NCBI GenBank assembly: GCA_947450545.1
Contig: CANFVU010000008.1
Location: 1-45,633, forward strand
DNA: 45,633 nt
Direction: 5' to 3'
Origin: Actinomycetota bacterium
GTDB lineage: Bacteria; Actinomycetota; Actinomycetes; Nanopelagicales; Nanopelagicaceae
Position numbers and translations under genes: made by a program. Under the pieces are notes generated by a model. It was not told the DNA's origin. It saw nothing but the letters and a program-made list of their open reading frames with translations, and searched no databases. Below, piece by piece: positions 28,001 through 45,633 of the stretch (positions are counted from its first letter, which is position 1; every line of letters begins with the position of its first letter).

Positions 28001-29266
28001 GTGAAGTTCAGTGTTAAAAGTTCGATTGCTGCAATTGCAGCTCTCTCCAGCATCTCAATGGGTTTAGTTACTCCCGGAGCACATGCTGCAATCACCCTTC
28101 CTAAAGGATCATGGCCAGTCTGCGCCAGCGCATCTGATGCTTATTGCATTGAATCTGTAACCATTACTCCTGATGGCGGAAAAGCTGTAACGCTTTCTTA
28201 TGGAGCTTCAGGCTCTGCAGCGGCAAACGCTGAAGTCATTGCAGGAAAGGCACTTGCGGGGCGTTGGAGCTCTACAGATTGGACTGCTTCCACATTAGGA
28301 GCAGCGGGTTACGACGGAATTTTTGTCGATGCTCACCAAGCAAATGATTTTGTTCCGTGGGTTTATGTCGATGTCGAGCCAACTTTAGGTACGTCATTAG
28401 CGGTACAAGCTTCCAATAAATCATATGCAGCAAACCTTGATAAGAACGCAGCAATCGGAATCAAATTACATATCGGCTCTATCAAAACTGGTGTGACATT
28501 TGGCGTTGGCCAAGATGTCAGCACCACTCAGAAAGATGCTGGCGGAGTCGCCACGATTCTGATCGATGGATATCCCACAACGGTTCCCGTCGCAGGATCC
28601 ACTAAAGATTGCACCGGAACAGCAGGCAAAGCTGTCGCACTCGTGAACCAATTCCAAAGTGTGATTGTTCCTCAGAATGATCCACTTGGTTTCGGAGTGG
28701 AAGGTGGCTCAGGCAACCTCTACGTCGGTTCAAATGGAACGTGCAAACTCTCCACACCTGTCTGGAACGCAGAGTCAAAGCACTTTAGTTACACCTCTGC
28801 TGCTCCAGCACTCTCTCCTGATGGATCCAAGACGAACAAAGGTTTCTATCACGCTGTCATTTCATTTGCAGATGCAAAAACCTATTGGGGTCTAGCAAAG
28901 CCACAAGATGCAGCAACAGCCCTTGTAGTTTCAATCATTACCAGCGCTGGCGGTTCAACAGCAGCAATCGCAACAGTCTCGGCGAAAAACAATTTCATTA
29001 CGATTGATACGACAAATTTTGATTTCCCTGATGCCAAACTCGATATCGGCCTTAATCCTTCATACAACGGAAGCAGCGCAGGTCCAGAAGCGACTGCAAC
29101 GTCCGAAGCAGCTAAAGCCACAGCCACAAGCGCTGCAGCTAAAGCCAACCAAAAGATCAAAGCCAACGTTTCGAAGACTTCGACCATCACCTGCGTGAAG
29201 GGGAAGCTGACCACAAAGGTTTCAGGCGTAAAGCCGGTCTGTCCTAAGGGCTACACGAAGAAGTAA
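28001..29266 (+). CDS. secreted tail-motif protein SP1 (subfamily A)
   Basis: Unrecognised 421-aa exported protein, first of ten paralogs. The start is GTG with AAGGAAGG upstream. Signal peptide 1-29 (PGAHA). C41 and C49 (C-x7-C) sit just after it. The middle has LAGRWSSTDW, GYDGIFVDAHQANDF and NKSYAANLD, all shared with SP2. Then comes a C-terminal beta-rich domain with DCTGTAGKA, NLYVGSNGTC and YWGL. An Ala/Thr-rich linker (about 360-390, with AAKATATSAAAKA) leads to the tail TCVKGKLTTKV...PVCPKGYTKK. Unlike SP3-SP10 it is separated from its neighbours by leaders and may be a single-gene transcript or ride with the sigma gene. Confidence 0.75.
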   Translation: MKFSVKSSIAAIAALSSISMGLVTPGAHAAITLPKGSWPVCASASDAYCIESVTITPDGGKAVTLSYGASGSAAANAEVIAGKALAGRWSSTDWTASTLGAAGYDGIFVDAHQANDFVPWVYVDVEPTLGTSLAVQASNKSYAANLDKNAAIGIKLHIGSIKTGVTFGVGQDVSTTQKDAGGVATILIDGYPTTVPVAGSTKDCTGTAGKAVALVNQFQSVIVPQNDPLGFGVEGGSGNLYVGSNGTCKLSTPVWNAESKHFSYTSAAPALSPDGSKTNKGFYHAVISFADAKTYWGLAKPQDAATALVVSIITSAGGSTAAIATVSAKNNFITIDTTNFDFPDAKLDIGLNPSYNGSSAGPEATATSEAAKATATSAAAKANQKIKANVSKTSTITCVKGKLTTKVSGVKPVCPKGYTKK

Positions 29267-29347
29267 GCCTAACTCTGACCACATTTGTTGGTTTGGGCTG
29301 CATAAATAAAGCCAGACTTCGCGGTGAAGACCGTAGATGCCATACCC

Positions 29348-29377
29348 ATGGCGTCACTTCTAAGCCATAGGGGGCTT
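29348..29377 (+). promoter_or_regulatory. alternative hairpins over the SP2 ribosome binding site
   Basis: ATGGC (29348-29352) can pair with GCCAT (29364-29368). Alternatively AAGCC (29362-29366) can pair with GGCTT (29373-29377), which would bury the SD AGGGGG (29369-29374). The two pairings share the same GCC and exclude each other, so the leader could switch between open and closed states. The rest of the 114-nt gap also holds CGGT-GAAG-ACCG. No known riboswitch class was recognised. Confidence 0.35.
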
Positions 29378-29380
29378 TAC

Positions 29381-31330
29381 GTGCGAAACATTTCAATCAA
29401 GCGCGGCACAGTTGTTGCCGCCGCGATCGCGCTCCTCATGTCCGGCATTTTGCCGTCACATGCAGCGACGCTTCGCGTACCAAAGACATCATGGGCAGCG
29501 TGTGCCGTTCAGAACGGTACTTACTGCGTTGAGTCAGTAACCATTACAACCGCGCAAGGAAAAATTGTTCCTTTGCAGTGGGTTAATTCAGGTGTAGCAG
29601 TTCCTGCTGCTCCAGCTAACAACGGAATTTCATTTGCACCAGTTGCAAAGGTTGTTAACGGAGTTGTTAAGGGCAACGGCTGGTGGATGGATCAATACCA
29701 GCGCGATGCACTTACATCAGGCACCGCATCATTCTTTGATATTTCATCTTTGATCGGTGGAACGACATATCCAGAAATGGGTGCGAAGTACGATTCCACA
29801 ACAAAGACATACGATGTAACTCGTCCACAGGAATCTTTCGGTCAGATCATTGATTGCTGGGATCCAAAAGCAAACTCTGCTTCTAAGAAAGCATGGAGCG
29901 ATTGCTTCAAGGGTGCGATTGCAGCAGTTAACGAAGGTGAAGTTAAATTCATTTTCAACTATGCAACTCCAGCCGATGCAGCAGCAGCTGCAAAAGACTT
30001 CTCAACCTCAAAGTGGATTGATCTCAAGGATCTTGCAAATCAAGGTCAACAACCTGCTTGGAATTCGAAGTACGACGAAGCAACTAAGACATTCACAAAG
30101 ACAGAACCTTTATACACACCAGTGTGGGTTACAAACAACTCATTGGTTAACGGTTGGGATGTAGCAGGTACACCTGCAACAGTTCCAGCAACAAATGTTC
30201 CTGCTCCTGCTACAACTCCTGATCCTGCAGCTTCAGCAGATCCTGCAGCTTCAGGTGCAACAGCGACTTCATCAGCACCAGGTACTGATGGCGTTGCTCC
30301 AGCTCCACTTGCTCCAAACGAGCAAACAACAGTGCAAGCACCTGTCGAGGCAGGTCGCGCTCTTGCTGGACGTTGGACAACTCCACTCTGGAACACACTT
30401 AATCTCGGTTCACTTGGTTATGACGGACTTTATGTTGATGCGAAAGCAGCAAACGAATTCGTTAACCACGTCATGATTGATGTAGTTCCAACACTTGCTG
30501 GTGCAGATCTCAAGGCAACTCTTGCTGGGCAACCAGGTAACAAGTCATACGCAGTAAGCCTTGACTCTGACATCGTCATCTCAGTAACAGTTCGCACAGG
30601 TGAAATTCATACAGGTGTAACAGTTGCTGTTGGTGTTGATACAACAGTCACAACAGAAAATCGCGGAGACTATACAAAGCTCACCGTTACAGGAACAGCA
30701 GTAAACGTTCCTCTTGCTAAGACTGCTGCAGATTGCACAGGCGAAGCTGGTGTTGCTAAGGCTCTCGTTCGTCAGTTCCAAACTTTGATTGTTGTTCAGA
30801 ATGACACTGCAGGATTTGGTGTCGACGGAACAACAGGAAATATGTACGTTGGATCTAACGGCGTCTGTTCGTTGACGACACCTACATGGGATGCTGCAAA
30901 CAAGACATTCTCTTGGACAGCAGCGGCTCCACACTTTGCACCAGATGGAACAACTCAGAACCTTGGTTTCTACAAGGCTGTTATTCCTTTCCAAGATGCA
31001 AAGGTTCTATGGGGTCTCACAAATCCAGCTGACGCAGCAACAGCTCTTACAGTTTCTGTAACAACAGAAGCAGGCGGATCTACTGCAGCTATCAGCACAG
31101 TTTCTGCGAAGAATGGAAATATCATTATTGATACTTCTGGCTTCGGATACTCAAAGCCAAAGTTGATGATCAAGATTAAGAAGGGCTACAAGCCTTCTGC
31201 TAAGAAGATCTCAACACTTCCAGCGCCTAAGTACACAATCACTTGTGCACTCGGTGCCACAACCAAGAAGGTAGTTGGAACCGCTCCAGCGTGCCCTAAG
31301 GGTTATGTGAAGGTCGGCCCACGCCGCTAA
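29381..31330 (+). CDS. secreted tail-motif protein SP2 (subfamily A, with large insertion)
   Basis: 649-aa exported paralog of SP1. I chose GTG 29381 because AGGGGG lies 6 nt upstream and the product then starts with a clean signal peptide (1-28, ending PSHA); in-frame starts at 29324 and 29348 are alternatives. C41 and C49 fall at exactly the SP1 positions. Between this and the SP1-like middle (LAGRWTTPLWN, GYDGLYVDAKAANEF) lies an insertion of roughly 230 residues with WWMDQYQRD and DCWDPKANS, ending in a Pro/Ala/Asp-rich linker. The C-terminal domain matches SP1. The tail is the most divergent of the ten: TCALGATTKKV...PACPKGYVK and ending GPRR. Confidence 0.72.
   Translation: MRNISIKRGTVVAAAIALLMSGILPSHAATLRVPKTSWAACAVQNGTYCVESVTITTAQGKIVPLQWVNSGVAVPAAPANNGISFAPVAKVVNGVVKGNGWWMDQYQRDALTSGTASFFDISSLIGGTTYPEMGAKYDSTTKTYDVTRPQESFGQIIDCWDPKANSASKKAWSDCFKGAIAAVNEGEVKFIFNYATPADAAAAAKDFSTSKWIDLKDLANQGQQPAWNSKYDEATKTFTKTEPLYTPVWVTNNSLVNGWDVAGTPATVPATNVPAPATTPDPAASADPAASGATATSSAPGTDGVAPAPLAPNEQTTVQAPVEAGRALAGRWTTPLWNTLNLGSLGYDGLYVDAKAANEFVNHVMIDVVPTLAGADLKATLAGQPGNKSYAVSLDSDIVISVTVRTGEIHTGVTVAVGVDTTVTTENRGDYTKLTVTGTAVNVPLAKTAADCTGEAGVAKALVRQFQTLIVVQNDTAGFGVDGTTGNMYVGSNGVCSLTTPTWDAANKTFSWTAAAPHFAPDGTTQNLGFYKAVIPFQDAKVLWGLTNPADAATALTVSVTTEAGGSTAAISTVSAKNGNIIIDTSGFGYSKPKLMIKIKKGYKPSAKKISTLPAPKYTITCALGATTKKVVGTAPACPKGYVKVGPRR
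30221..30254 (+). repeat. two-copy direct repeat in the SP2 linker
   Basis: GATCCTGCAGCTTCAG occurs at 30221-30236 and again at 30239-30254, an 18-nt period encoding DPAASA repeated in the Pro/Ala-rich linker. It is a small in-frame expansion that could vary in copy number between strains. Confidence 0.8.
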
Positions 31331-31364
31331 ATAAGGCGTAAAAAGTAAAGCCCCGAGGGTAATC

Positions 31365-31399
31365 GTTCACTCAGTCTCGATCACGTAGACTGAGTGAAC
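31365..31399. terminator. 13-bp perfect inverted repeat between SP2 and SP3
   Basis: GTTCACTCAGTCT (31365-31377) and AGACTGAGTGAAC (31387-31399) pair over 13 bp without mismatch around a 9-nt loop. It is the strongest hairpin seen in the window. There is no T-run directly after it, so if a terminator it is of the tail-less type described for actinobacteria. It separates SP2 from the SP3-SP10 operon. It could instead be a protein-binding dyad or leader structure controlling the operon. Confidence 0.6.
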
Positions 31400-31441
31400 A
31401 TCCTCATTAACAGCACTGTTTTTCACTTCTGAGGAGATGGC

Positions 31442-33304
31442 ATGAAGAAGCAACGCTTCGCTGTATTTGCACTCGCTATCTCACTCGCGCTGCCAACTAT
31501 CGCATCGAACGCTGCAGATCCTGTTTATCCCGATGGTGTTCCAGCCCCAGGTCGCTCGTGCGGCGATGCTTCTGGTGCAACGGTTATGGATACCATTTCA
31601 GGCAAAGCTCTCATCTGTAAATCAAATGGCGTTCAAAATATTTGGTTATTCGCTGACGGTTCTGAAATTCCAGCAGGAGTGGGCGGTTATAAAGCTACTC
31701 CGCTTCCAAACGATGGAATTGACGAAGCATTCACAGCTCCTGAGCCACCGGCAAAAAAGAATTATCAAGGTCTTTATCATAATGATCTTGCGGGTCTCAC
31801 TCGCCTAACTTCAGTTCTTTTAAATTTTCAACCAACCGATAGAAGTCCAACAAAAGTGACATCGTGCACAAGTCTGAGTGACTCTGCTTGTAACGGATCG
31901 GGTGTTCTTAAGTACGAAGCCGTACTTCCAGCATGTGATTCAGCAAACCCAACAAATTGCATTTCAGATGTCTACGCAACAAAAGCTGATGGAACAAAAG
32001 TCCAAGGAATCATTAAAGGGATTTTTAATAACGACAATCCACAGAATTTCACAGGGGATTCTGCTTCAGGTCTACCTACTGGATCAGAACCAACACTCGT
32101 CCAATTCCCCGGCATAAATCATTCGGCTGGCGACCTATACCTCGTAAAACCACACATGATTGGACACCGAAATCAGGGTGAGTCATCTTGGACCACAGAA
32201 AGTTTTAAAGTGAGTATTTTTGCAGTCAAAATGGTTGATGGAACCTTTGGCTTCAATCAATTTTCAACCGATGCTGCAAATTATCAAAATAACATTGGTG
32301 AAGCTGGTGGAAATGGAATTGGCGCAAACACATCTGCAGGCTGCGCCGCAGAATCAAAAACTCAGTGCGCAGCAATGTACCCACTCCCACTTGATGCTTC
32401 TTTCGGAGTCTCCATCAAGTTCAGTAAGGCGCTAGTTGGTTGGCTCCATGGTCGAATAACGAAGCCAACAATCTCCCTGCAGAATGACACAAAAGGTGGC
32501 GCGCTACTAACAATTGATGCAAAGGCTATTAAAACTCCCACCAATGCGGTGTGGGTAACAAACGAACAGATGCCTCAATCTCTTCGCGATTGGTACGGCA
32601 ACGATCATGGCGGTTCGATTCTCTACCAAGGTGCAAATCGCGATCTCTTTGCTCCCTTCTCTGAAATTGCTCTACTTCGCGATGGAAATTCGCAACACAA
32701 CGAGCGCACACTTTCTGAATACGTTCAATGGCTTCCATTAATGGGAGAGAAGGCGCAAGCGATGCCTACCATGTGGGCAGTTGAAACGATGAGCCAAGAG
32801 GGTGATCCGAAATCTCCGATCGTGAATTGCATCAATAAGCAAAAGAATCTCGCCGGCCTTGTCACAACAAATGCTGCCGAATACCTCGATGGCCCACCGG
32901 TTTATACCGATGGCACACTGGATTACAAAGTAGCTGCAACTCACTTTGAAAAAGATGGCACCACTGTTTTCCAAGGTACTTACGATCTCTTGATGAGTTC
33001 AGAGGTTGCTCGTTGTATCTATGGATTCACAAAAGCTCCCATCAAAGCCTCAATCTCAGTCACCAATGAAACCGGGGGAGCATCGATTGCTTCCACCATC
33101 ATCAATGAAGCCAATGGTTGGCTCACTTTGGGCGCCTATGGATTTACTTTCTCTAACCCAACAATTCGCGTGAAGTTGACTCAAGACGCACCTCCTGCGC
33201 CGGTGAAAGCAAAACTGATCACCATTACCTGCGTAAAGGGCAAATCAACTAAGAAAGTCTCCGCTGCCAACCCGACCTGTCCATCTGGATATAAGAAGAA
33301 ATAG
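31442..33304 (+). CDS. secreted tail-motif protein SP3 (subfamily B)
   Basis: Unrecognised 620-aa exported protein, first gene of the tightly packed SP3-SP10 operon. GAGGAG lies 5 nt before ATG. Signal peptide 1-24 (ASNA). It alone carries an extra N-terminal module with C40 and C59 followed by NIW, resembling short Cys/Trp modules of other actinobacterial surface proteins. Then the subfamily-B signature C142, C150, C165, C173. GWLHGRITKP is near residue 332, a cysteine (VNC) precedes GLVTTN near 471, and ARCIYGF follows in the C-terminal domain. The Pro-rich linker is short (APPAPVK). Tail: TCVKGKSTKKV...PTCPSGYKKK. Confidence 0.75.
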   Translation: MKKQRFAVFALAISLALPTIASNAADPVYPDGVPAPGRSCGDASGATVMDTISGKALICKSNGVQNIWLFADGSEIPAGVGGYKATPLPNDGIDEAFTAPEPPAKKNYQGLYHNDLAGLTRLTSVLLNFQPTDRSPTKVTSCTSLSDSACNGSGVLKYEAVLPACDSANPTNCISDVYATKADGTKVQGIIKGIFNNDNPQNFTGDSASGLPTGSEPTLVQFPGINHSAGDLYLVKPHMIGHRNQGESSWTTESFKVSIFAVKMVDGTFGFNQFSTDAANYQNNIGEAGGNGIGANTSAGCAAESKTQCAAMYPLPLDASFGVSIKFSKALVGWLHGRITKPTISLQNDTKGGALLTIDAKAIKTPTNAVWVTNEQMPQSLRDWYGNDHGGSILYQGANRDLFAPFSEIALLRDGNSQHNERTLSEYVQWLPLMGEKAQAMPTMWAVETMSQEGDPKSPIVNCINKQKNLAGLVTTNAAEYLDGPPVYTDGTLDYKVAATHFEKDGTTVFQGTYDLLMSSEVARCIYGFTKAPIKASISVTNETGGASIASTIINEANGWLTLGAYGFTFSNPTIRVKLTQDAPPAPVKAKLITITCVKGKSTKKVSAANPTCPSGYKKK

Positions 33305-33310
33305 AGATCA

Positions 33311-35140: not shown

Positions 35141-36859
35141 ATGAAGAAACTACTTGCTTCCATTCTCATTGTCGTGATGTCAGGGTCAGCTCTTGCCTCA
35201 ACGCACGCTGAAACCTTGCCCGCTGAACAATTTCAAGCACCAGCTGAGCCCGGTCTTGGCTACTACGGATATCGATCTATTCCTGATTTCCTCCTTCACT
35301 TCACAAATCCTTATTTATTGGGAATGGAGACAGATGGAAGAAAACCAAGTGTGGTCAATAGATGCTCTGGCTTAGATGATCCTAAGTGTGCAAAATCCGA
35401 CTACTGGAAATTCTCAACACTTCTCGATTTCTGCACCGATGCTGTGACAAACAATTGCATCGAAGGTGTCTCTGCAGTGGGAGCAAACGGAGCCCCCTTA
35501 GAAGTCAAACCTGCACAAATTTTCCCAGGCATCCGTGTTGAGGATTACAAAGGCAATATCGCAAGTGATCTTCCCAACGGCGGACAAATTCACCTGGTTT
35601 CTATTCCTGGAGCACCTCACGTAGGGGGAGATCTCTACGCTCCAGTCGTTCTTATCAATGGATTTAAAGATTCCGTCCTCGCATCACCCAAACCATTCAC
35701 CATCGGTCAAATTGGTTTAGCTTTTTATGCTGTAACAATTAAAAATGGAAGCTACAACACCTATCTCAACAGCACTAATGCTTCCGTGTACGTTGATCGG
35801 ACATGGGGATTTGGTGGTGGCGCAATTGAGGGCTGCGTGATTAGTGATGCAAATACATGTGCGGCAAAACAAACTCTTCCTCTTGATGTGAAATTCGGAA
35901 TAAAAATCAAGACTAGTTTTGCAATTCCTGGTTGGTTCCATGGTTTATTTGCAGATCCCAACATCAAAATCACTAGCGATGCGGATCAAAATACAAACCT
36001 AGAAATTTCAGCTAATGCTGTGCAAAGTCCAATATTTGCCCTATGGAAGAAGAAGACTGAGCTTCCAAAGTCCCTATTAGACTTCTATAGCGTGCGCCCT
36101 CAGCCTCTTGGTGGTTCAGGTTCGGGCGCTGGAAATATGGCTTTACAGAGTGGTGACCCTGCCAATTGGAGCTTGATGTTTGATCCAACTGGCTTCGGCC
36201 AATTTGAAATGGATCAATTCCTACAGTGGCTTCCAGTCTTTGGAGATAAGGCAACAGCAGATCCAACGTACTGGAACTTATTTGCAGAGTCCGGCTCTAT
36301 TTATGGCAGAAGTTGTCCCGTTGATGCCAACACTATTACTGGCGTTGTCTCCACCAACGCTTCGCAATACATCGCCGGTCCACCTCAATGGGATCCAGCT
36401 TCTGAAACTTTGGACTATCGCGTTGCTGCTGCGCATTACATGGCTAGCGGGGAAGTTTTCAAAGGCACCTACGATTTAGCGATCAATGCAGATTATGCGC
36501 GTTGCTTGTACGGCTTCACCAAAGCACCGATTAAAGCAACAGTGAGCATCGTTTCCAATTCAGGCGAAAATAATTTAGCGACAACAACAATTCGCGAAGC
36601 GGATGGATTCCTTTATCTCGCAGCTAAGGGATTTACATTTTCTAACCCAACAATCAAAGTAAAGCTTTCTCAAGAGGCTCCGCCTGCTCCAGTTGCACCT
36701 GTTGTCACACCTACCGTTGCTCCAGTCACTCCTTTGCAACCAGTAGCACCAGTTATTTCCCAACCGAAGAAGATCACAATTACTTGTATTAAAGGGAAGA
36801 CAACCAAAAAAGTTTCAGCTCTTAAGCCAATATGCCCAGCTGGATATAAGAGGAAATAG
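35141..36859 (+). CDS. secreted tail-motif protein SP5 (subfamily B)
   Basis: 572-aa exported paralog whose ATG immediately follows the SP4 stop with no gap, so translation probably depends on termination-reinitiation. Signal peptide 1-23 (STHA). Four-cysteine signature C75, C83, C98, C106. GWFHGLFADP near 263 replaces the usual Arg by Leu. An RSCP cysteine precedes GVVSTN near 400; ARCLYGF follows. A glycine-rich loop GGSGSGAGN lies near residue 325. The linker is Pro/Val/Thr-rich (about 525-545). Tail: TCIKGKTTKKV...PICPAGYKRK, with Arg in the last triplet. Confidence 0.75.
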   Translation: MKKLLASILIVVMSGSALASTHAETLPAEQFQAPAEPGLGYYGYRSIPDFLLHFTNPYLLGMETDGRKPSVVNRCSGLDDPKCAKSDYWKFSTLLDFCTDAVTNNCIEGVSAVGANGAPLEVKPAQIFPGIRVEDYKGNIASDLPNGGQIHLVSIPGAPHVGGDLYAPVVLINGFKDSVLASPKPFTIGQIGLAFYAVTIKNGSYNTYLNSTNASVYVDRTWGFGGGAIEGCVISDANTCAAKQTLPLDVKFGIKIKTSFAIPGWFHGLFADPNIKITSDADQNTNLEISANAVQSPIFALWKKKTELPKSLLDFYSVRPQPLGGSGSGAGNMALQSGDPANWSLMFDPTGFGQFEMDQFLQWLPVFGDKATADPTYWNLFAESGSIYGRSCPVDANTITGVVSTNASQYIAGPPQWDPASETLDYRVAAAHYMASGEVFKGTYDLAINADYARCLYGFTKAPIKATVSIVSNSGENNLATTTIREADGFLYLAAKGFTFSNPTIKVKLSQEAPPAPVAPVVTPTVAPVTPLQPVAPVISQPKKITITCIKGKTTKKVSALKPICPAGYKRK

Positions 36860-36864
36860 AGAAG

Positions 36865-38511
36865 ATGAAAAAAGTTCTCCTTTTACTTTCGATTTCCGGA
36901 TTGATTGCGATGGGACTTGCTCCTGGCGCTAATGCTGGAGCTATGGCTGATAAGAATCAGCCAACACAATCTCTATCCATCAACGAGAACGTGCTTGTTT
37001 CAACAATGCCACCGGCAATATTTGGGTCAACAAATCCGAATGATGAGCACTCATACATGCTCTGCAGCACTTTCGATGATGCTGTCTGTTCTGCTGCCAC
37101 TAGTATTAATTTCTTCAATCATCTTGTCCCATGCGGTGCTGAAGCAAGCGTGGATTGCGTGAAATCGCTTTGGGCCGTAGACCCCGCTGGAAACCGCATT
37201 GAGGCAACTTTTGTTAAGTATGTTGATGAGGAAAATCCATCACATCACGATGCCATTCCTTCACTCGGAATCCCACTCGGAAAAGGCCTTGGTGGTATTT
37301 GGAATATTCCTGGGGTCAAGAATTCGGCTGGCACAACAACATATCTTTTGGATGCTGCACTCAATGGATGGATTGAAGGTAGCGGCCCAATAACCAGTCG
37401 CCGACTTAACACAACAATATTCTCAGCGGCATTCACGCCCGTTGATGAAAAACCAGACCCACAAAACGACACACATTCGATTGCGGTGTCAGCTGGACCA
37501 GATCATGGTCTCGGTGCAAATGGGTTTGGAAATGCTTTAGGCGGCATTTGCGCAGGGCATGCTCCAAAGATTTGCTATGCAAAAGTAGATTTCCCTACAG
37601 GTTATCGATTCGGTTTCTCAATTTCAGTCACAAAGCCTTTTCAAGGTTGGTTCCATGGTCGCTTCTTTGCACCATCAATCACTCTCACCACTGGAAGCCA
37701 ACAAATAGTTAGCGTGGAAGCAGAGCCAGTTATTGTTCCAACCCTTGAAGTGAGTGCACCAACAGCATCCCTTCCAACAGCGCTTTCCGATTACCTCTTT
37801 AATGGTCGCGTATTTGGAATGGGCGGCGGAAAAATAATTGCTGAATCTTCAGGACAAGATTCCTTCGATCTAGCTTCTTTATTCCTGCCACTCGCTAAAG
37901 ACACTGCTTCAAGCTCAAACTCCTATTGGTCTTTTAAGACATTGAATTGGAATCAATCAATGGGAAATGTTCAGAAATGTACGGCTAATGATGGTGGCGT
38001 CTCTGGTGTCGTGACTACCAATGCCCTTGTCTATAGCGCGGGTCCACCAGCATTTAATCAATCAACAAATTCTCTTGATTACAAACTCCTTTCTCCTCAC
38101 TACCAAGCTGATGGCAAACCTGCGATTGGAACCTACGATCTCTTGCTTCGTTCCTCTGTTGCACGTTGTATTTATGGCTTCTCAAGTGCGCCACTCAAAG
38201 CTTCCATTGAAATCGTGAGCAACGATGGCAACGCGCAGATTGCAAGCACAACTCTTGTTGAAGAAAAGGGTTGGCTCAAGATGTCAGCCAAAGGCTTTGG
38301 CTATTCAAATCCAACAATCAAGGTGACGCTTACTCAAGATGCACCGGTTGTTGTCCCTGCTCCCGCACCATCAATTGCGCCAACAACCGCTCCAGCAACA
38401 GTCGTAAAGCCTGTTATCAAGCAACTAACTATTACGTGCACCAAAGGTAAATCAACGAAAAAGGTCACCGCGGCGAAGCCAGTGTGTCCAAAGGGGTATG
38501 TAAAGAAGTGA
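36865..38511 (+). CDS. secreted tail-motif protein SP6 (subfamily B)
   Basis: 548-aa exported paralog, 5 nt after SP5, with GAGAAG as a weak SD. Signal peptide 1-24 (GANA). Four-cysteine signature C67, C75, C90, C98. GWFHGRFFAP near 261. QKCTAND precedes GVVTTN near 380, and ARCIYGF follows. The central region is shorter than in SP3-SP4. Linker VVVPAPAPSIAPTTAPA. Tail: TCTKGKSTKKV...PVCPKGYVKK. The last codons overlap the GTG start of SP7 by 4 nt. Confidence 0.75.
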   Translation: MKKVLLLLSISGLIAMGLAPGANAGAMADKNQPTQSLSINENVLVSTMPPAIFGSTNPNDEHSYMLCSTFDDAVCSAATSINFFNHLVPCGAEASVDCVKSLWAVDPAGNRIEATFVKYVDEENPSHHDAIPSLGIPLGKGLGGIWNIPGVKNSAGTTTYLLDAALNGWIEGSGPITSRRLNTTIFSAAFTPVDEKPDPQNDTHSIAVSAGPDHGLGANGFGNALGGICAGHAPKICYAKVDFPTGYRFGFSISVTKPFQGWFHGRFFAPSITLTTGSQQIVSVEAEPVIVPTLEVSAPTASLPTALSDYLFNGRVFGMGGGKIIAESSGQDSFDLASLFLPLAKDTASSSNSYWSFKTLNWNQSMGNVQKCTANDGGVSGVVTTNALVYSAGPPAFNQSTNSLDYKLLSPHYQADGKPAIGTYDLLLRSSVARCIYGFSSAPLKASIEIVSNDGNAQIASTTLVEEKGWLKMSAKGFGYSNPTIKVTLTQDAPVVVPAPAPSIAPTTAPATVVKPVIKQLTITCTKGKSTKKVTAAKPVCPKGYVKK

Positions 38512-40265
38512 AAATAAGAAAATTTATCGAAGTACTTGTTCTTACAGCTCTCACATTGGGCATGGCTGGCGCATCAGCTGTGGACGTGGAGGACGAGCAA
38601 TGGGTAGGACCACCAGAGCTTCGCCAATTTAATAATCTGGCTGATCCTCCTCATTCATACATCATGGAAGAAGTTGCGAATGAGAACACAGTGGTCTCGC
38701 ATATTTTTGCCAACTATTACTCACAAAATCCTGCCGATTTTGAGCGCTACATTTGTACCAACATAACCGAGGGGAAGTGTGCGGGAGCAAATGATTATGT
38801 TTATGCATCAGTTTTTCCAACTTGCCAGTCTGCCGAGGATATTAACTGTGTTGGATCGCTAACCGCTTTTGGTGCCGACGGTAAACCAAGTTCTGGAACT
38901 TTCAGCGAGTATTCAGTTCCAAATCATTTTAACAATTTTAAAGCTGTTCCAGAGATTGGACTTCCGGAGGGTTCGACCGGTGGAATTTGGACCGTAACAG
39001 GCGCACCTCACAAATTTGGAAATCAGTACGCTGTCTTTGTTATTGCAGAAGGCCGTACTTCACTTAGGAACAAGAACGGCTGGCCTGCTGCTTATGATGC
39101 CTTAAGTGCGCGAATCATCCCCGTTTCGGTTCAGAAAACCTCAAAACGAACATCTGGTTGGGGCACATTCCAAGATAATCTTTTGCGCCCAGATACTAAA
39201 GCCAATACTCGTGGCGGACCCTTCTATGACAATAATGAAGGCTTTCGTTGTGTGGCACCATATGGAATAAATGACGACCAATGTTTGATTGCGCATGCGT
39301 TTCCAGAAAATGTTCGCTTCAAACTTTCAGTGCAACTTCCCAAGGCTCCTCTGGGTTGGATTCATGGTCGCATGATTGATCCAGCGATTGATATTTCAAA
39401 AACAGGCAGCAATTACACAATTAATGTAGAGGCAAATCCCGCACGTATTCCATCAATTTTCCATGCAGCCGGTTGGAGTCAACTGCCTGCTAATCTTCAA
39501 AGTTACTGGGAGAGCCTCGATACTTTAGATTGCAGTAATAATGCGTGTGGATCCCGCTCCTCCACAAACTATTCCATTCCGATGGGTAAGCAGACCACTC
39601 AAATTACGGCTGCAAATTTTGGTGCGGAAGCCATGAAGCAGTTAAAGCTTTATCTTCCTCTCGTAAACGATAAGGCAATTGCAAGCCCTAGTACTTGGGC
39701 TTGGCGCACCCTTCCTTCAGGGGAAATGTCGGGTGCAAACGCATGCTTTACAAATGGAGATGGTGTTAAAGGAATCGTGACAACAAACGCATCTGCATAC
39801 TCTGCCGGTCCTCCCGAATTCAAAAACGGAATTCTCAATTATCAAGTAGCAGCACCACATTTCAGCCGCGATGGCGCTGTCTTTAAAGGTGATTACACCT
39901 TGGTGCTTGATTCAAAGGTTGCTCGCTGTCTCTACAAGTTCAGTAATGCTCCTATCCAGGCATCAATTTCTGTTTTGAGCGATAAAGGCGAAGCTTCGGT
40001 CGCAACCACAACAGTGTCAGAAAAAGATGGCTGGCTAAGACTTGTTGCTAGAAATTTTGAATTCTCATCGCCAACGGTTCAAGTCAAACTGACTCAAGAA
40101 ATTCCCACAGTTGCTCCCGCGCCATCGGTTGCACCAACAAACGCTCCAGTAACTATCGTGAAACCTGTTGCAAAACAAATTTCAATCACATGCGTTAAAG
40201 GAAAAACCAGCAAGAAAGTAACTGCAGATAAACCAGCATGCCCGAAGGGATATACAAAGAAGTGA
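38508..40265 (+). CDS. secreted tail-motif protein SP7 (subfamily B)
   Basis: 585-aa exported paralog. I set the start at GTG 38508, which overlaps the SP6 stop (GTGA); the frame is open to 38484 but that would put charged residues before the signal peptide. Signal peptide about 1-24 (AGASA). Four-cysteine signature C83, C91, C106, C114. GWIHGRMIDP near 283; NACF then GIVTTN near 421; ARCLYKF. Linker TVAPAPSVAPTNAP. Tail: TCVKGKTSKKV...PACPKGYTKK. AAGGGG in the SP6 tail codons may serve as its SD. Confidence 0.75.
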   Translation: MKIRKFIEVLVLTALTLGMAGASAVDVEDEQWVGPPELRQFNNLADPPHSYIMEEVANENTVVSHIFANYYSQNPADFERYICTNITEGKCAGANDYVYASVFPTCQSAEDINCVGSLTAFGADGKPSSGTFSEYSVPNHFNNFKAVPEIGLPEGSTGGIWTVTGAPHKFGNQYAVFVIAEGRTSLRNKNGWPAAYDALSARIIPVSVQKTSKRTSGWGTFQDNLLRPDTKANTRGGPFYDNNEGFRCVAPYGINDDQCLIAHAFPENVRFKLSVQLPKAPLGWIHGRMIDPAIDISKTGSNYTINVEANPARIPSIFHAAGWSQLPANLQSYWESLDTLDCSNNACGSRSSTNYSIPMGKQTTQITAANFGAEAMKQLKLYLPLVNDKAIASPSTWAWRTLPSGEMSGANACFTNGDGVKGIVTTNASAYSAGPPEFKNGILNYQVAAPHFSRDGAVFKGDYTLVLDSKVARCLYKFSNAPIQASISVLSDKGEASVATTTVSEKDGWLRLVARNFEFSSPTVQVKLTQEIPTVAPAPSVAPTNAPVTIVKPVAKQISITCVKGKTSKKVTADKPACPKGYTKK

Positions 40266-42031
40266 AGAATCTATTCGGTAAGAGTTTATTGGTTGGATTG
40301 GCAGTTATTCTCACTGGAATGAGCGCCGCCGCGTATGCGGGTAATGACACTACCTGGATTCCAAACGATGAAACTTCTTACGCTCCAACTATGCATGCAT
40401 TCGCTTTTACCGACAGGCTTCCACTTGCCAGAACATTCTCGACTCTGGCCGTTGGAGATGGCACCAATGATCACAATTGTAAATCTACGTCCGATCCAAT
40501 ATGTGCGCCGTACCAAAATTTTCAATATGAATCCATTTTGAAAGTTTGCGAAAACCCATCTGAGACTGATTGCGTATCGTCTGTGACGGCGTACGGAGCA
40601 AACGACGTTGCAAATGCTGGGACATTCACTAAGTACACAGTTACAAATCATATGAACGCATTCCCGGCTGATGCGAAGGCCGGCATCCCTGCAGGATCCA
40701 TGCCGAGTATTTGGTCTATTCCAAGCGCGCCACATGCATCTGGAAGTGATTATGCAGTCTTTGCAGGATTAAATGGAAATGTCATGCGCAACGGACAAGA
40801 GACTCCACTCGGCGGGTTTATGCAAGTTGCATTGATTCCCGTTGTTTTGAAAGATTTTGGAAAAGGACGGCTAAGTGTTGCCGCTGGTTGGGTCCAATCA
40901 ATTCCAAATACTTTTTATGATTACTGCACAGATGCGCCTCGAAATGGAAATACATTTGTTGACTGCGCGCATGTCAATGGAGACGGATGTGTATTCGCAA
41001 CAAATGATCAAGGCATGTGTTATTCCGAGGAATCGTTTGGATCCGTGCAGAAATTCAATGTGCAAGTAAAGCTCGCAAAAGAGCCAACCGGTTGGATACA
41101 TGGCAGAATGACAGATCCATCAATTTCCATCACAAAAGTCTCAACAGGAGGAATTAATCTCTCGGTTACCGGTGGCACAAACACCGTACCGATGGTTTAT
41201 CAAAATGAAGCTTGGTCCAAACTTTCTTCCTCAATGCAGGATCTCTGGGTTCGCTGTACAAACGCTCAGTCTGAATGTGGTCCTTATGCCTATGCACGCT
41301 CTTCAAGTACAACGGTGGATTCGATTGATTTGATGAAAACTCTTACCGGCAATGCATTAATTAATGAAATTGAATATGTACGAGCCGCAGGAAAGCTACC
41401 CCTTGAAATCATGTCGAAAATTGCACCATTGATTGGAGATAAGGCGCAAGCATCGAGCACGACATGGTCTATGCGAACCCTTTCCACAACAGAGATGAAC
41501 GGTGCCAATAGATGCTTTATGAGCACACCAGGCATCAAAGGAATTGTGACGACCAATTCAGTTGCCTATTCAGCCGGACCTCCAGAATATAAGGATGGTT
41601 CCCTCAATTATCAGGTCTCGTCACCACACTTTAATCCTGACGGGACCACTCCATTCAAAGGCAACTACAACTTAGTAATGCGTTCGGATGTAGCTCGTTG
41701 CATCTACGGATTCTCAAGCGCTCCCATTAAGGCTTCGATTTCAGTCCTGTCTGCCGACGGCAATAATGATGTTGCGACTTCGATTGCTGCAGAAAAAGAT
41801 GGTTGGATCTCGTTGAGTGCCAACAACTTCCAGTTCTCTGCTCCTGTTATTCAAGTGAAATTTACACAGGATGCTCCGGCGGTTGTTGCTCCTGCTCCAC
41901 AACCAACAACACCGGTTGTTGTCATAAAGCCTGTTGCAAAACAAATTACGATTACCTGCGTAAAAGGCAAGACAACTAAGAAAGTGATCGCCATCAAGCC
42001 AGCATGCCCAAAGGGGTACCTAAAGAAATAA
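40262..42031 (+). CDS. secreted tail-motif protein SP8 (subfamily B)
   Basis: 589-aa exported paralog, closest in layout to SP7. GTG start at 40262 overlaps the SP7 stop by 4 nt. Signal peptide 1-26 (AAYA). Four-cysteine signature C73, C81, C96, C104. A mid-protein cysteine cluster (DYCTDAP, DCAHVNGDGC, MCYSEE) is larger than in its relatives. GWIHGRMTDP near 276; NRCF then GIVTTN near 425; ARCIYGF. Linker VVAPAPQPTTPVVV. Tail: TCVKGKTTKKV...PACPKGYLKK. The linker-tail junction shares an 18-nt identical stretch with SP7. Confidence 0.75.
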   Translation: MKNLFGKSLLVGLAVILTGMSAAAYAGNDTTWIPNDETSYAPTMHAFAFTDRLPLARTFSTLAVGDGTNDHNCKSTSDPICAPYQNFQYESILKVCENPSETDCVSSVTAYGANDVANAGTFTKYTVTNHMNAFPADAKAGIPAGSMPSIWSIPSAPHASGSDYAVFAGLNGNVMRNGQETPLGGFMQVALIPVVLKDFGKGRLSVAAGWVQSIPNTFYDYCTDAPRNGNTFVDCAHVNGDGCVFATNDQGMCYSEESFGSVQKFNVQVKLAKEPTGWIHGRMTDPSISITKVSTGGINLSVTGGTNTVPMVYQNEAWSKLSSSMQDLWVRCTNAQSECGPYAYARSSSTTVDSIDLMKTLTGNALINEIEYVRAAGKLPLEIMSKIAPLIGDKAQASSTTWSMRTLSTTEMNGANRCFMSTPGIKGIVTTNSVAYSAGPPEYKDGSLNYQVSSPHFNPDGTTPFKGNYNLVMRSDVARCIYGFSSAPIKASISVLSADGNNDVATSIAAEKDGWISLSANNFQFSAPVIQVKFTQDAPAVVAPAPQPTTPVVVIKPVAKQITITCVKGKTTKKVIAIKPACPKGYLKK

Positions 42032-42038
42032 GGTAGAG

Positions 42039-43226
42039 ATGAAAAAGCACGTTTCACGCGTACTTACCCTTGTGATGCTAACGAGCTTTTTGTCAGCGAC
42101 CCCAGCGATTGCTGCTGAAGATTGGCCTGCGGCCCCATCACCCGATTGGGCGGCGACATCTGTGCTTCAAGGTATTCGCCTGGGTCAATGGTTGCCTTGC
42201 GATACGGCATGGAAATCAACAACTGACTGCATACAAGGTTTATCGTGGTCGTTAGCTGACGGAAGCAAAAGCGGAGAAGCTAAATTTCTTCCTAATCCAT
42301 CATTTGATCCGATGACCGCGACTCAGGTATGGGAAAAGTCAGCCACACCACAAGGCGGATCAATCGATAACTACGCACACTTTGTTAATACTCGAGCAGG
42401 CACATGGGCGCTTCCAGCGGGATTTCAGAATTCTGATGGCTCAAATGAAGTTTATGTGGAGGCGCATGTGATGGAGAGCGGTCTCCAATTTCGTGTAACT
42501 CCAAATAGCGATGGAAATTTACCGGCTGGGGCAATCGCAAAAATCACTCTTAAGAGCGCCAACTTTGGAAAGTTGGCTGGCTGGATTTTGAGTAATACAA
42601 AGAGCCCTGGCGTTTCAGTCTCTGGAGATCTCGTAACCATTTCAGGAACCGCTGTTGTGACACCTTTTGCAGGATCTGCTGATGCTTCAACGTGCAAATC
42701 AAATTCAGTTAAAGCGGCCGGTTCCCAGTCAATGATTCAAATCAGCGTATTGATGTGGCCAGGACAATCTATAAAAGCAGGAGATGCCATTGTTGGAACG
42801 AATGGCGTTCAATGCTTCACGGGAGTCGAATTTGACCAAGCCACTCAATCCATCGTTGTGGGTGTTGGAAATGTTCACTTTGATGTTGATGGAAAACCAT
42901 TACAAGGTTGGTTTGATTTGAAGATCAAAGGCGCCAAAGCCAAGCAATGGTGGGGACTTGAACCTTCAATCGCTATTCGTTCTGTTCAAGTTCAAGTGCT
43001 TTATGAAGATGGAACCTCAGTTGTTGCGACAACACAAGCTGGGTATGACAAGGCAAATGATTGGATCACCTTGAAGTCGCAAGGCTTCCACTTCTCATCA
43101 CCTCAATTGCGAGTTACATTTGGTAAGCCTGCGCTCAAGACAACCGTCACATGCATCAAAGGCAAGACCACAAAGAAAGTAACTGCGGTTAAACCAATAT
43201 GCCCATCGGGCTTTAAGAAGAAGTAG
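42039..43226 (+). CDS. secreted tail-motif protein SP9 (short, subfamily A-like)
   Basis: 395-aa exported protein, the shortest of the set, 7 nt after SP8 with AGGTAGAG as SD. Signal peptide 1-25 (PAIA). It has only one early cysteine pair, C54 and C63 (C-x8-C), like SP1/SP2 but one residue longer. The C-terminal domain shares WWGL and the CFTG/VHFDVDGKPLQGWF layout with subfamily A, while GWILSNTKSP aligns with the GW-HGR region of subfamily B, so it looks intermediate. There is no Pro-rich linker; the tail TCIKGKTTKKV...PICPSGFKKK follows the domain directly. The tail DNA is identical to that of SP10 over 57 nt. Confidence 0.72.
   Translation: MKKHVSRVLTLVMLTSFLSATPAIAAEDWPAAPSPDWAATSVLQGIRLGQWLPCDTAWKSTTDCIQGLSWSLADGSKSGEAKFLPNPSFDPMTATQVWEKSATPQGGSIDNYAHFVNTRAGTWALPAGFQNSDGSNEVYVEAHVMESGLQFRVTPNSDGNLPAGAIAKITLKSANFGKLAGWILSNTKSPGVSVSGDLVTISGTAVVTPFAGSADASTCKSNSVKAAGSQSMIQISVLMWPGQSIKAGDAIVGTNGVQCFTGVEFDQATQSIVVGVGNVHFDVDGKPLQGWFDLKIKGAKAKQWWGLEPSIAIRSVQVQVLYEDGTSVVATTQAGYDKANDWITLKSQGFHFSSPQLRVTFGKPALKTTVTCIKGKTTKKVTAVKPICPSGFKKK
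43141..43197 (+). repeat. 57-nt direct repeat, copy 1 (SP9 tail)
   Basis: These 57 nt are identical base for base to 44758-44814. They encode the TVTC...KTTKKV...KP part of the tail in SP9. Identity includes all third-codon positions, although the rest of SP9 and SP10 differ strongly. Confidence 0.95.
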
Positions 43227-43235
43227 CATAAATCT

Positions 43236-44843
43236 ATGGTTCGAAAAATTGGCCTCATACTGCTTGGCTTTCTTTTAACTTTGCCTGGCGCAGGAGCTTT
43301 TGGAGATTCCTCGGTGGAAGTAAACTTCAACGAACGACTTCCAGGGCAGGGCCTTGGTCAGGATGTAGCAACTTCGTACTTTCAAGGCATCACACTGTCG
43401 AGCCCAATCGGATTCAATCAACGATTATGTACCTCTACTAACGATAGCAAGTGCATGGATATGGCCCAATGGGATTATTTTGCAATACTCCCACCTTGTG
43501 TTGAAGGCGACCTCGACCAGTGCATCAAATCAGTTCGAATAGAAGTTGATGGGAAGCTAATCGATGCAAGTTATATAAAATCTGCAGGCGGAATTACATA
43601 TCAAGCAGATCCAACATTAAAAACTCCAGCTGGTGGAAATGTAAGCGTATGGAGTGCCAGAAATTCCAGCGGCCAAACTGACTATTTTGCGGTGAAGGCA
43701 CTAGTTTCTTATACCGGCAAAAAAAGGACTGCTGGCATTGTGACTGGCATGAATGCACAGGTATTTAAAATCAGACGCGTTTCGATGATTGGAGTGGACT
43801 ACGGAGTAGCAGAACATGTCTGGCCTGCAGGAAATATTTCAGTCGATGGAGCGGGCGGTCCAAGTGGGAATATCGATTGCATTTATTTCTCTGCCAGCGA
43901 ATGTGGCGAAGTAGTTGAAGCCCCAGGTTTGCGAGCGTCTCTAGAGCTAAAGTTGGATAACAGAGTCACTGGCTGGATGAGTGCCAGAATGGATGAACCG
44001 GATATCAAAGTCACAGTTTTGAGCTCCACTACGAATTTACTTGAGATTACTGGAACAGCTGTCGCCGTTCCCTTCATCAAGAACATTCTAAGCCGAAGTG
44101 AACTTCCTTCCGACATGAAGAATGTTGGCACTGGTGCGGACGGATCACTTCCACCCGGAACAATTGGTCTTCACTATCCATCTCCCCAACAATTCTCAAT
44201 TAATCAGTTCTTAAAGCTGCAGAATCTTTTTAAGCCCCAAGCAACGGGCATTGTTCCCACATGGTCCATTCGCTCCATACCTCAGGCTGAAAATCCATGC
44301 ATAACTTCAACAAGCAAGTTGGTCGGCCTTGTAATGACGAATTCAACCGTCTATGAGGTCGCGCCTCCTACATTCACTGATGGAACTCTCAACTACAAAG
44401 TAGCTTCACTTCACTTTTCACCTGATGGTTCTGTTTTTCAAGGAAAATACAATCTTCTAATTTCAAGTACTGCCGCTCGTTGTCTTTTTGGGTTTGGTAA
44501 TGCGCCAGTATCTGCTTCAGTTTCAATTATTGGAGAGCAAGGAAGTCAGTCGGTGGTTGCGTCAACAATTAAAGAGGTCGATGGTTGGATTTATTTGCGA
44601 GTTTCAGGTTTCACGTTCTCTAACCCAACGATTCAAGTGAAGTTGCAGCAAGAAGCACCCACGATGCCAGTAGTGCAACAACCTGTGCCTACTTCTCCAA
44701 CACCAAGTCCAACATTGACGTCAACGCCAGGAAATATGAAACCCATTTTATTAAAGTCAACCGTCACATGCATCAAAGGCAAGACCACAAAGAAAGTAAC
44801 TGCGGTTAAACCAAAATGTCCAAGTGGTTATAAGAAGAAGTAA
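43236..44843 (+). CDS. secreted tail-motif protein SP10 (subfamily B, divergent)
   Basis: 535-aa exported paralog ending the array, 9 nt after SP9, with no evident SD. Signal peptide about 1-23 (GAFG). Four-cysteine signature C65, C73, C88, C96 is intact. The GW-HGR region is changed to GWMSARMDEP (near 246), losing the His. NPCITS precedes GLVMTN near 363; ARCLFGF follows. The linker is the longest Pro/Ser/Thr stretch (PVPTSPTPSPTLTSTPG). Tail: TCIKGKTTKKV...PKCPSGYKKK. Its stop codon abuts the stop of the convergent small gene with no gap. Confidence 0.75.
   Translation: MVRKIGLILLGFLLTLPGAGAFGDSSVEVNFNERLPGQGLGQDVATSYFQGITLSSPIGFNQRLCTSTNDSKCMDMAQWDYFAILPPCVEGDLDQCIKSVRIEVDGKLIDASYIKSAGGITYQADPTLKTPAGGNVSVWSARNSSGQTDYFAVKALVSYTGKKRTAGIVTGMNAQVFKIRRVSMIGVDYGVAEHVWPAGNISVDGAGGPSGNIDCIYFSASECGEVVEAPGLRASLELKLDNRVTGWMSARMDEPDIKVTVLSSTTNLLEITGTAVAVPFIKNILSRSELPSDMKNVGTGADGSLPPGTIGLHYPSPQQFSINQFLKLQNLFKPQATGIVPTWSIRSIPQAENPCITSTSKLVGLVMTNSTVYEVAPPTFTDGTLNYKVASLHFSPDGSVFQGKYNLLISSTAARCLFGFGNAPVSASVSIIGEQGSQSVVASTIKEVDGWIYLRVSGFTFSNPTIQVKLQQEAPTMPVVQQPVPTSPTPSPTLTSTPGNMKPILLKSTVTCIKGKTTKKVTAVKPKCPSGYKKK
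44758..44814 (+). repeat. 57-nt direct repeat, copy 2 (SP10 tail)
   Basis: Identical to 43141-43197 and in the same reading frame, 1,617 nt downstream of copy 1. The identity stops abruptly at both ends. Confidence 0.95.
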
Positions 44844-45551: not shown

Positions 45552-45576
45552 ATGATCTTGCTATCGCTATTACTAG

Positions 45577-45633
45577 CGACCCAGACGGGACTTGAACCCG
45601 CGACCTCCGCCGTGACAGGGCGGCGCGCTAACC
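45577..45633 (-). tRNA. tRNA-Asp (GTC), 5' end cut by window edge
   Basis: The minus strand shows the anticodon arm GCCGCCCTGTCACGGC with loop CTGTCAC (anticodon GTC, aspartate), the T arm GCGGG-TTCAAGT-CCCGT and the 3' acceptor half CTGGGTC with discriminator G. No CCA is encoded. The 5' acceptor strand and most of the D arm lie outside the window. It is upstream of tRNA-Phe on the same strand, so the two may be cotranscribed. Confidence 0.9.

What the first reader, a model, noticed from the sequence alone, without database searches (positions are those of the whole stretch)
28001..44843. Ten tandem secreted paralogs with a shared architecture and no recognised function
Seen directly: ten consecutive same-strand genes (SP1-SP10), each with a signal peptide, related beta-rich C-terminal domains and the same cationic tail. 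They span 16.8 kb in an otherwise very compact genome segment. SP3-SP10 have gaps of 9 nt or less, or 4-nt overlaps, so they look like one operon. Such a costly expansion in a seemingly streamlined actinobacterium implies strong selection. Inference: a surface coat, adhesin set or phage/grazer-facing variable surface. I know of no description of this system.
Basis: partly seen in the sequence, partly recalled or inferred. Interest (0 to 1): 0.9.

Follow-up and report, generated by a model that had tools for sequence, protein, structure and literature searches.

The report
Putative wall-docked surface-protein operon, acI bacteria
A very abundant kind of lake bacterium appears to carry an operon of ten secreted proteins, all ending in a small positively charged module that probably sticks them to the cell wall; one protein seems to be made in bulk, others are swapped between close relatives, and some phages encode proteins with the same module.

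Summary
Ten consecutive secreted proteins (SP1-SP10) share a C-terminal domain (CTD) and a cationic 28-residue tail with two cysteines. No Pfam or NCBIfam family claims them; fold searches found no convincing solved relative. The 1.31 Mb genome belongs to the freshwater acI lineage.

New here: (1) The array is part of a conserved locus: ECF sigma factor, membrane partner, SP1/SP2, then 0-8 further paralogs, often with a DUF4436 protein. The partner occurs in 26 of 201 family genomes, 25 of them CTD-positive. (2) SP2's codon usage is shifted towards ribosomal-protein usage, here and in most relatives, so it is probably the bulk protein; the others are minor, and some are replaced between close relatives whose upstream genes are 84-97% identical. 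(3) The tail is a module, also found on protease-like, binding-protein and lectin-like proteins; it can be internal or triplicated and lacks a neighbouring transmembrane helix. (4) Phages of one lineage encode proteins ending in it.

Best reading: a sigma-controlled surface layer held non-covalently to the wall, with one major and several exchangeable minor subunits. It works like, but is unrelated to, the C. difficile slpA/cwp locus. Localisation, ligand and function are untested.

The parts
24669..25706 (+). WecA/MraY-like glycosyl transferase family 4; flanking gene, kept next to the locus in four same-genus genomes
   Evidence: PF00953 1.2e-31; best NCBIfam hit ECA_wecA 113 bits, below its cut-off; neighbour in G022, G089, G107 and G113 (L149, L151, L155/L019, L154/L020). 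Membership of the system uncertain.
25715..26698 (+). DUF4436 protein, recurrent at one end of the locus
   Evidence: PF14494 1e-22; beside the array, at either end, in L019, L020, L027-L030, L034, L039, L057, L157, L159, L162; absent beside it in L021, L049/L160, L149, L151
26700..27311 (+). ECF sigma factor (SigE-like)
   Evidence: PF08281 and PF04542 over cut-off; TIGR02937 59 bits over cut-off, TIGR02983 108 bits but under its cut-off of 141.55
27301..27972 (+). membrane protein with one hydrophobic span (judged by eye) and an outer domain; candidate anti-sigma factor or sensor of the sigma factor (inferred from position only)
   Evidence: no Pfam or NCBIfam match; overlaps the sigma gene; paired with it and followed by SP1 or SP2 in relatives; 26 of 201 family genomes
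28001..29266 (+). SP1, second family: N-domain, CTD, tail
   Evidence: structure model without the first 25 residues, pLDDT 79
29381..31330 (+). SP2, second family, longer than SP1; predicted bulk protein (ORF opens at 29324)
   Evidence: 49% identical to SP1; CAI 0.626, ENC 40.2 against CAI 0.36-0.46 for the other nine
31365..31399 (+). stem-loop between SP2 and SP3 (arms 31365-31377 and 31387-31399)
   Evidence: RNA fold z -4.57 for 31331-31441; stem kept with paired changes in two relatives
31442..33304 (+). SP3, first family
   Evidence: 91% ortholog in L020
33311..35140 (+). SP4, first family
   Evidence: best relative among those held 43%
35141..36859 (+). SP5, first family
   Evidence: best relative among those held 42%
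36865..38511 (+). SP6, first family
   Evidence: best relative among those held 72%, in L149
38508..40265 (+). SP7, first family (ORF opens at 38484)
   Evidence: best relative among those held 41%
40262..42031 (+). SP8, first family (ORF opens at 40238)
   Evidence: best relative among those held 64%, in L041
42039..43226 (+). SP9, shorter; CTD and tail shared with the rest
43236..44843 (+). SP10, first family
   Evidence: 84% ortholog in L046; structure model without the first 21 residues, pLDDT 82.9, pTM 0.81
44757..44840 (+). tail module of SP10; the others end at 29263, 31312, 33301, 35137, 36856, 38508, 40262, 42028 and 43223
   Evidence: tail profile hits; two strands predicted there in the SP10 and SP1 models

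Best explanation
This locus makes a secreted protein layer held to the wall of a single-membrane cell. Shown: the proteins have export-signal-like N-termini, a variable N-terminal half, a conserved, predicted beta-rich CTD and the same tail module. Inferred: they leave by Sec; the tail folds as a disulfide-closed hairpin carrying about eight net positive charges and binds an anionic wall polymer without covalent linkage; SP2 is the bulk coat-forming protein; SP3-SP10 are minor subunits expressed below it (a stem-loop separates SP2 from SP3) that decorate the coat and are exchanged between lineages, which changes what the surface offers to phages, grazers or particles. The upstream ECF sigma factor and its membrane partner probably switch the locus on in response to an envelope signal.
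For: Sigma factor and membrane partner precede SP1/SP2 in all 8 of the 14 fetched genome stretches that hold the pair, and all 12 of the 79 genome-contig loci that hold the partner have SP1 or SP2 just downstream (three contigs are in both sets). Partner in 26 of 201 family genomes, 25 of them among the 45 with a CTD-profile match at E 1e-39 or better (hand count; two of the 26 partner hits, G043 and G142, are weak partial ones). Within the genus, SP2 and the partner match in the same 7 of 32 genomes. Tail: ends within 6 residues of the C-terminus in 129 of 130 ORFs; C-terminal hydrophobic stretch in 4 of 121 tailed ORFs against 174 of 503 controls; net charge +8.1 against +0.1; on trypsin-like, solute-binding, laminin-G, Ig-like and FMN-binding proteins; three copies in one 745-residue protein and two in one of 2256. 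No sortase match in the 88% complete genome, while the control search rings in 3 of 14 genomes. SP2 codon bias. Mean pairwise identity falls from tail 0.69 and CTD 0.47 to 0.24-0.25 in the N-terminal and middle regions. Replacement after SP3 or SP2 in relatives with 84-97% identical upstream genes.
Confidence: 0.55

Rival explanations
1. The tail is a C-terminal sorting signal that an unidentified enzyme cuts and joins to the envelope, as in PEP-CTERM, GlyGly-CTERM or MYXO-CTERM systems.
For: Short, lineage-bound, C-terminal, many per genome (14 matches in this one), on unrelated exported proteins; invariant cysteines, as MYXO-CTERM has one (PMC11980579, abstract).
Against: No transmembrane helix next to it (hydrophobic stretch in 4 of 121), which PEP-CTERM and MYXO-CTERM have according to the abstracts read; internal and repeated copies fit a domain better than a cleavage site.
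Confidence: 0.15
2. The proteins are glycan-binding or nutrient-capturing proteins: each paralog catches a different polysaccharide or particle, and the expansion reflects diet.
Against: The matches are in the conserved CTD, not in the variable half that should set specificity; all Z are under 8, a range the tool calls common; window proteins score 13.7-15.5 bits against a PP2 cut-off of 25. The neighbours of relatives' loci were not annotated for glycan use, so this rival is only weakly tested.
Confidence: 0.2
3. The proteins are released weapons or enzymes aimed at competitors.
For: Tandem diversified secreted paralogs occur in such systems (general knowledge, no call).
Against: No toxin or enzyme family found over cut-off; no gene for immunity between SP3-SP10, which abut or overlap; the invariant positions of the first family are mainly cysteine, glycine, proline and aromatic residues.
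Confidence: 0.05

Closest known systems
Clostridioides difficile slpA/cwp locus (CWB2 cell-wall proteins)
   Same: A tandem locus of secreted paralogs sharing a wall-binding module: 12 of 29 CWB2 proteins in one locus, one of them the S-layer precursor, non-covalent anchoring to an anionic polymer, and a variable cassette whose selective pressure is attributed, with a 'perhaps', to host immunity and phages (PMC5270738, passages read). A phage endolysin there is said to carry a host-derived wall-binding domain (PMC9045149, title and start of abstract only).
   Different: No CWB2 (PF04122) match in any of the ten; module of 28 residues instead of three tandem CWB2 motifs; own ECF sigma factor; different phylum; bulk expression of SP2 is only predicted.
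PEP-CTERM / GlyGly-CTERM / MYXO-CTERM sorting tags
   Same: Short C-terminal homology region, many per genome, on diverse exported proteins (PMC1569441 and PMC11980579, abstracts; PMC3237569 in the listing).
   Different: No transmembrane helix; copies can be internal or repeated; no partner enzyme known.
SigE-family ECF sigma factor with membrane partner
   Same: Sigma factor gene overlapped by a gene for a membrane protein (TIGR02983 best hit, below its cut-off).
   Different: No recognised anti-sigma domain; the downstream genes are the secreted array.

Membership tests
CWB2 cell-wall protein family (slpA/cwp) | CWB2 motifs (PF04122) | tested here: not met
   No PF04122 in the Pfam scan of the ten proteins at E up to 10
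CWB2 cell-wall protein family (slpA/cwp) | one abundantly made S-layer protein among the paralogs | tested here: inconclusive
   Codon adaptation singles out SP2; no expression data
SLH-anchored S-layer proteins | SLH domain (accession PF00395 recalled) | tested here: not met
   No such match
LPXTG/sortase surface proteins | sortase in the genome | tested here: not met
   PF04203: 0 matches in the own genome, 88% complete; control rings in 3 of 14 genomes
LPXTG/sortase surface proteins | LPXTG-like motif, hydrophobic stretch and charged end | tested here: not met
   The ten tails read show no such motif; hydrophobic stretch in the last 60 residues in 4 of 121 tailed relatives
PEP-CTERM-like sorting tags | transmembrane helix in the C-terminal tag | tested here: not met
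   4 of 121 tailed ORFs have a hydrophobic stretch in the last 60 residues
PEP-CTERM-like sorting tags | dedicated partner transpeptidase or protease | not tested
   Would need phylogenetic profiling of whole proteomes
ECF sigma factor | sigma-70 regions 2 and 4 | tested here: met
   PF04542 and PF08281 over cut-off; TIGR02937 over cut-off
ECF sigma / anti-sigma pair | anti-sigma domain in the partner | tested here: inconclusive
   No Pfam or NCBIfam match; position and one hydrophobic span fit
Phloem protein 2 / Nictaba lectins | PF14299 over its cut-off | tested here: not met
   13.7-15.5 bits in three window proteins against 25; 9 of 60 relatives match weakly, best E 1.7e-4

The most novel reading that the evidence does not exclude
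One of the most abundant groups of freshwater bacteria carries a two-tier protein coat: SP2 forms the bulk layer, a variable set of up to about eight low-level subunits plugs into it, and a 28-residue cationic module is the general wall-docking device of the lineage. Phages have captured that module to plant their own proteins on the infected cell's surface, for example to block competing phages. The module is then also a sequence mark that ties uncultured phages to their hosts.
Probability: 0.3. Interest if true: 0.85.

Novelty: new variant of a known kind. Interest (0 to 1): 0.7.

Why it matters
[quoted passage not shown] If the tail is a wall-docking module, their exported surface proteins become countable in any genome and there is a handle for surface labelling. 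It offers a sequence link between uncultured phages and these hosts, whose genomes are said to lack CRISPR-Cas (PMC10202952, first of two parts read). It also bears on the report that secreted proteomes of small freshwater genomes have low functional redundancy, which was computed from KEGG annotations (PMC11039613, passages): a family without annotation, with up to about 20 matches per genome, would be invisible to that measure (inference).

Tried and rejected

Limits of counts: the 79 genome-contig loci are the best of 150 confirmed relatives, found with tail patterns. Nine tailed ORFs cut by locus ends were dropped before the 121. The 45 CTD genomes are a hand count at best E 1e-39 or better. 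In one search only 10 of the 24 tail-only ORFs were scanned. One search was given 18 loci with SP2; L031, L035 and L049 also hold it and were not given; L019/L155 and L020/L154 are the same contigs, so 15 of 16 distinct loci show SP2 as the most codon-adapted of the recognised locus genes, unrecognised neighbours left aside. The codon reference is two ribosomal-protein genes of the window's genome, used for relatives too, and one of them gave the ribosomal comparison value. Controls include spurious frames. In one search SP4 lacks the cysteine motif as I wrote the pattern. An earlier count said 22 of 30 viral loci; the recount is 21.
Full report
What is there. The window is the whole of contig C8 (45,633 bp) of a 1.31 Mb genome in 41 contigs, 88% complete. 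Ten ORFs from 28001 to 44843 follow each other on the + strand. SP3-SP8 and SP10 align end to end (28-40% identity). SP1 and SP2 are 49% identical to each other. SP9 is a shorter third type. All ten share about 110 residues of CTD and a 28-residue tail. A cysteine motif in the N-terminal domain, C-x6-10-C-[IVL]-x-[SGDN], is present in 9 of the 10 and in 81 of 104 CTD-bearing ORFs of at least 380 residues from relatives, against 12 of 339 other ORFs and 1 of 104 shuffled sequences. The common architecture is: export signal, cysteine-containing variable N-terminal half, CTD, mostly proline-rich linker, tail.

Whose it is. A scan of 84,980 species genomes with tail patterns gave 150 confirmed relatives, of which 79 loci were returned. 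Titles name uncultured actinobacteria, Candidatus Planktophila, Candidatus Nanopelagicaceae and the isolates IMCC19121 and IMCC26103; many sample codes are of lakes or reservoirs. Three MAGs titled Bifidobacterium breve (10 loci) and one titled Streptomycetaceae (2 loci) are probably mislabelled. Three unnamed family genomes have contig lengths equal to NZ_CP016769.1 (P. lacus), CP015604.1 (IMCC26103) and CP015605.1 (IMCC19121), so the window belongs to the acI lineage (Nanopelagicaceae; inference from these lengths).

Distribution. The CTD-plus-tail profile matches 138 of 201 family genomes, but unevenly. By hand count 45 genomes have a best match at E 1e-39 or better, that is a true CTD, and 38 of these have 7-20 matches; the others have 0-8, with weak best scores as expected for tails alone. 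Among single-contig genomes of one genus (g16), five have 17-20 matches, six have 1-2 and two have no tail. The tail alone is found in 144 of 201 order genomes, all of one family in the rows listed, in 33 of 394 class genomes of which 32 are of this family, and in 1 of 296 phylum genomes, the window's own. It is close to a lineage mark.

The locus is larger than the ten genes. Upstream lie an ECF sigma factor (26700-27311) and an overlapping gene for a protein with one hydrophobic span (27301-27972). Of 14 genome stretches fetched eight hold this pair, and in all eight the order is sigma factor, partner, SP1 and/or SP2, then first-family paralogs (L149, L151, L154, L155, L157, L159, L160, L162). 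All 12 of the 79 genome-contig loci that hold the partner have SP1 or SP2 just downstream; L154, L155 and L160 repeat three of these contigs. In L028 no further paralog stands between SP2 and DUF4436. DUF4436 is at one end or the other in 5 of the 8 stretches. The partner matches in 26 of 201 genomes, two of them weakly, and 25 of the 26 are among the 45 CTD genomes. In the genus, partner and SP2 match in the same 7 of 32 genomes. Against a tight link: 20 CTD genomes have no partner match, and six loci (L022-L026, L033) have an SP1-like gene without it in the stretch held.

SP2 stands out. Against two ribosomal-protein genes of the same genome, SP2 has a codon adaptation index of 0.626 and an effective codon number of 40.2. 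The one higher value among the 28 window genes given is 0.684, for a fructose-bisphosphate aldolase. SP1 and SP3-SP10 lie at 0.36-0.46. Over 18 loci the SP2 median is 0.563 against 0.388 for 46 first-family or SP9 genes, and SP2 is the highest of the recognised locus genes in 17 of 18; the exception is L151, and the bias is slight in L030 and L033. A stem-loop with 13-bp arms lies between SP2 and SP3. Its stem is kept in two relatives with paired changes, and the region folds 4.6 standard deviations better than shuffles. It may stop or slow transcription, or protect the SP2 end of the message (inference).

The minor genes are swapped. Against L020 the upstream genes are 86-97% identical, SP1 80%, SP2 92% and SP3 91%, but the next gene is only 36% like its nearest window paralog; SP10 is 84% identical in another contig of the same MAG, behind a gene of 38%. 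Against L019 (upstream genes 84-95%) the gene after SP2 is already at 34%. In a tree of 93 relatives and 7 window proteins SP4, SP5 and SP7 have no close relative (43% or less), while SP6 and SP8 have one elsewhere (72% and 64%). Retained orthologs have dN/dS of 0.07-0.13, against 0.02-0.09 for the upstream genes. Within the first family mean pairwise identity is 0.69 in the tail, 0.47 in the CTD and 0.24-0.25 in the N-terminal and middle regions; the tail value is inflated by the way relatives were found.

The tail is a module. In the 79 loci 130 ORFs carry it, within six residues of the C-terminus in 129; 110 ORFs have the CTD and 24 only the tail. Of 10 of these 24 that were scanned, six have a Pfam domain over its cut-off: a trypsin-like protease, a periplasmic-type binding protein, a laminin-G protein, two Ig-like proteins and DUF3472. 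In this genome an FMN-binding protein has it. Tailed ORFs have an N-terminal hydrophobic stretch in 119 of 121, a C-terminal one in 4 of 121, and net charge +8.1 in the last 28 residues (controls 245 of 503, 174 of 503 and +0.1). One protein of P. lacus has three copies separated by linkers and followed by more sequence, and a 2256-residue ORF of IMCC19121 has two. Both structure models show two strands in the tail. No sortase match is found in the genome. A small wall-binding domain fits all this better than a cleaved signal. The ligand is unknown; an anionic wall polymer is a guess from the charge.

Phages use it. A scan of viral contigs found 30 loci with the tail, in each at or within three residues of the end of an ORF. 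In 21 of 30 a protein of 562 or 563 residues with an export-signal-like N-terminus follows the terminase large subunit directly. Five more loci (L119-L121, L130, L143) carry related endolysin and HslV-like genes and another tailed protein; of the four scanned, three are trypsin-like (L119, L120, L143) and one has no match (L130); L121 was not scanned. Four loci (L142, L145, L147, L148) show none of the phage genes tested and may not be phage. PHROGs confirms terminase, UvsX-like recombinase and endolysin on the 111-kb contig of L137. A phage would keep such a tail only if the host envelope recognises it (inference), and the tail points to the host. Named phage records hold no match.

How it most likely works and what it resembles. 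Exported proteins dock through the cationic module to the wall; SP2, made in bulk, forms the coat; SP3-SP10, made at low level and differing between lineages, vary what it presents; the sigma factor and membrane partner set when it is made. In logic this is the slpA/cwp locus of C. difficile (PMC5270738, passages), with unrelated parts. It fails that family's defining module test, so it is described as working like it, not as a member. Eight paper searches aimed at the lineage showed no description of the system in what they listed.

Noticed in passing
L119-L148, e.g. L137:8438-10126: Viral contigs encode export-signal proteins ending in the host tail; in 21 of 30 loci directly downstream of the terminase large subunit.
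   Followed up: partly
window 31365-31399: Conserved stem-loop between SP2 and SP3 with paired changes in two relatives; role not tested.
   Followed up: partly
window 29381-31330: SP2 codon usage is shifted towards ribosomal-protein usage, unlike the other nine; its low dS against neighbours may follow from this.
   Followed up: yes
L161:2989-9759: A 2256-residue ORF with two tail copies lies a few genes downstream of the array of IMCC19121.
   Followed up: no
L156:4889-7126: A 745-residue CTD protein of P. lacus has three tail copies and does not end with one.
   Followed up: partly
G787: The one genome outside the family, of 394 class genomes sampled, with a tail match (E 4e-7); not examined.
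   Followed up: no
G107:C30:804-1216: A first-family copy in a sister genome gives two overlapping hits, each with one TGA inside; probably a broken gene.
   Followed up: no
L022, L023, L025, L028, L029, L059, L068, L075, L076, L083: Three lake MAGs titled Bifidobacterium breve carry these genes; the titles are probably wrong.
   Followed up: no
window 45552-45633: The contig ends in what looks by eye like a second, cut tRNA gene next to tRNA-Phe (ARAGORN calls only tRNA-Phe).
   Followed up: no
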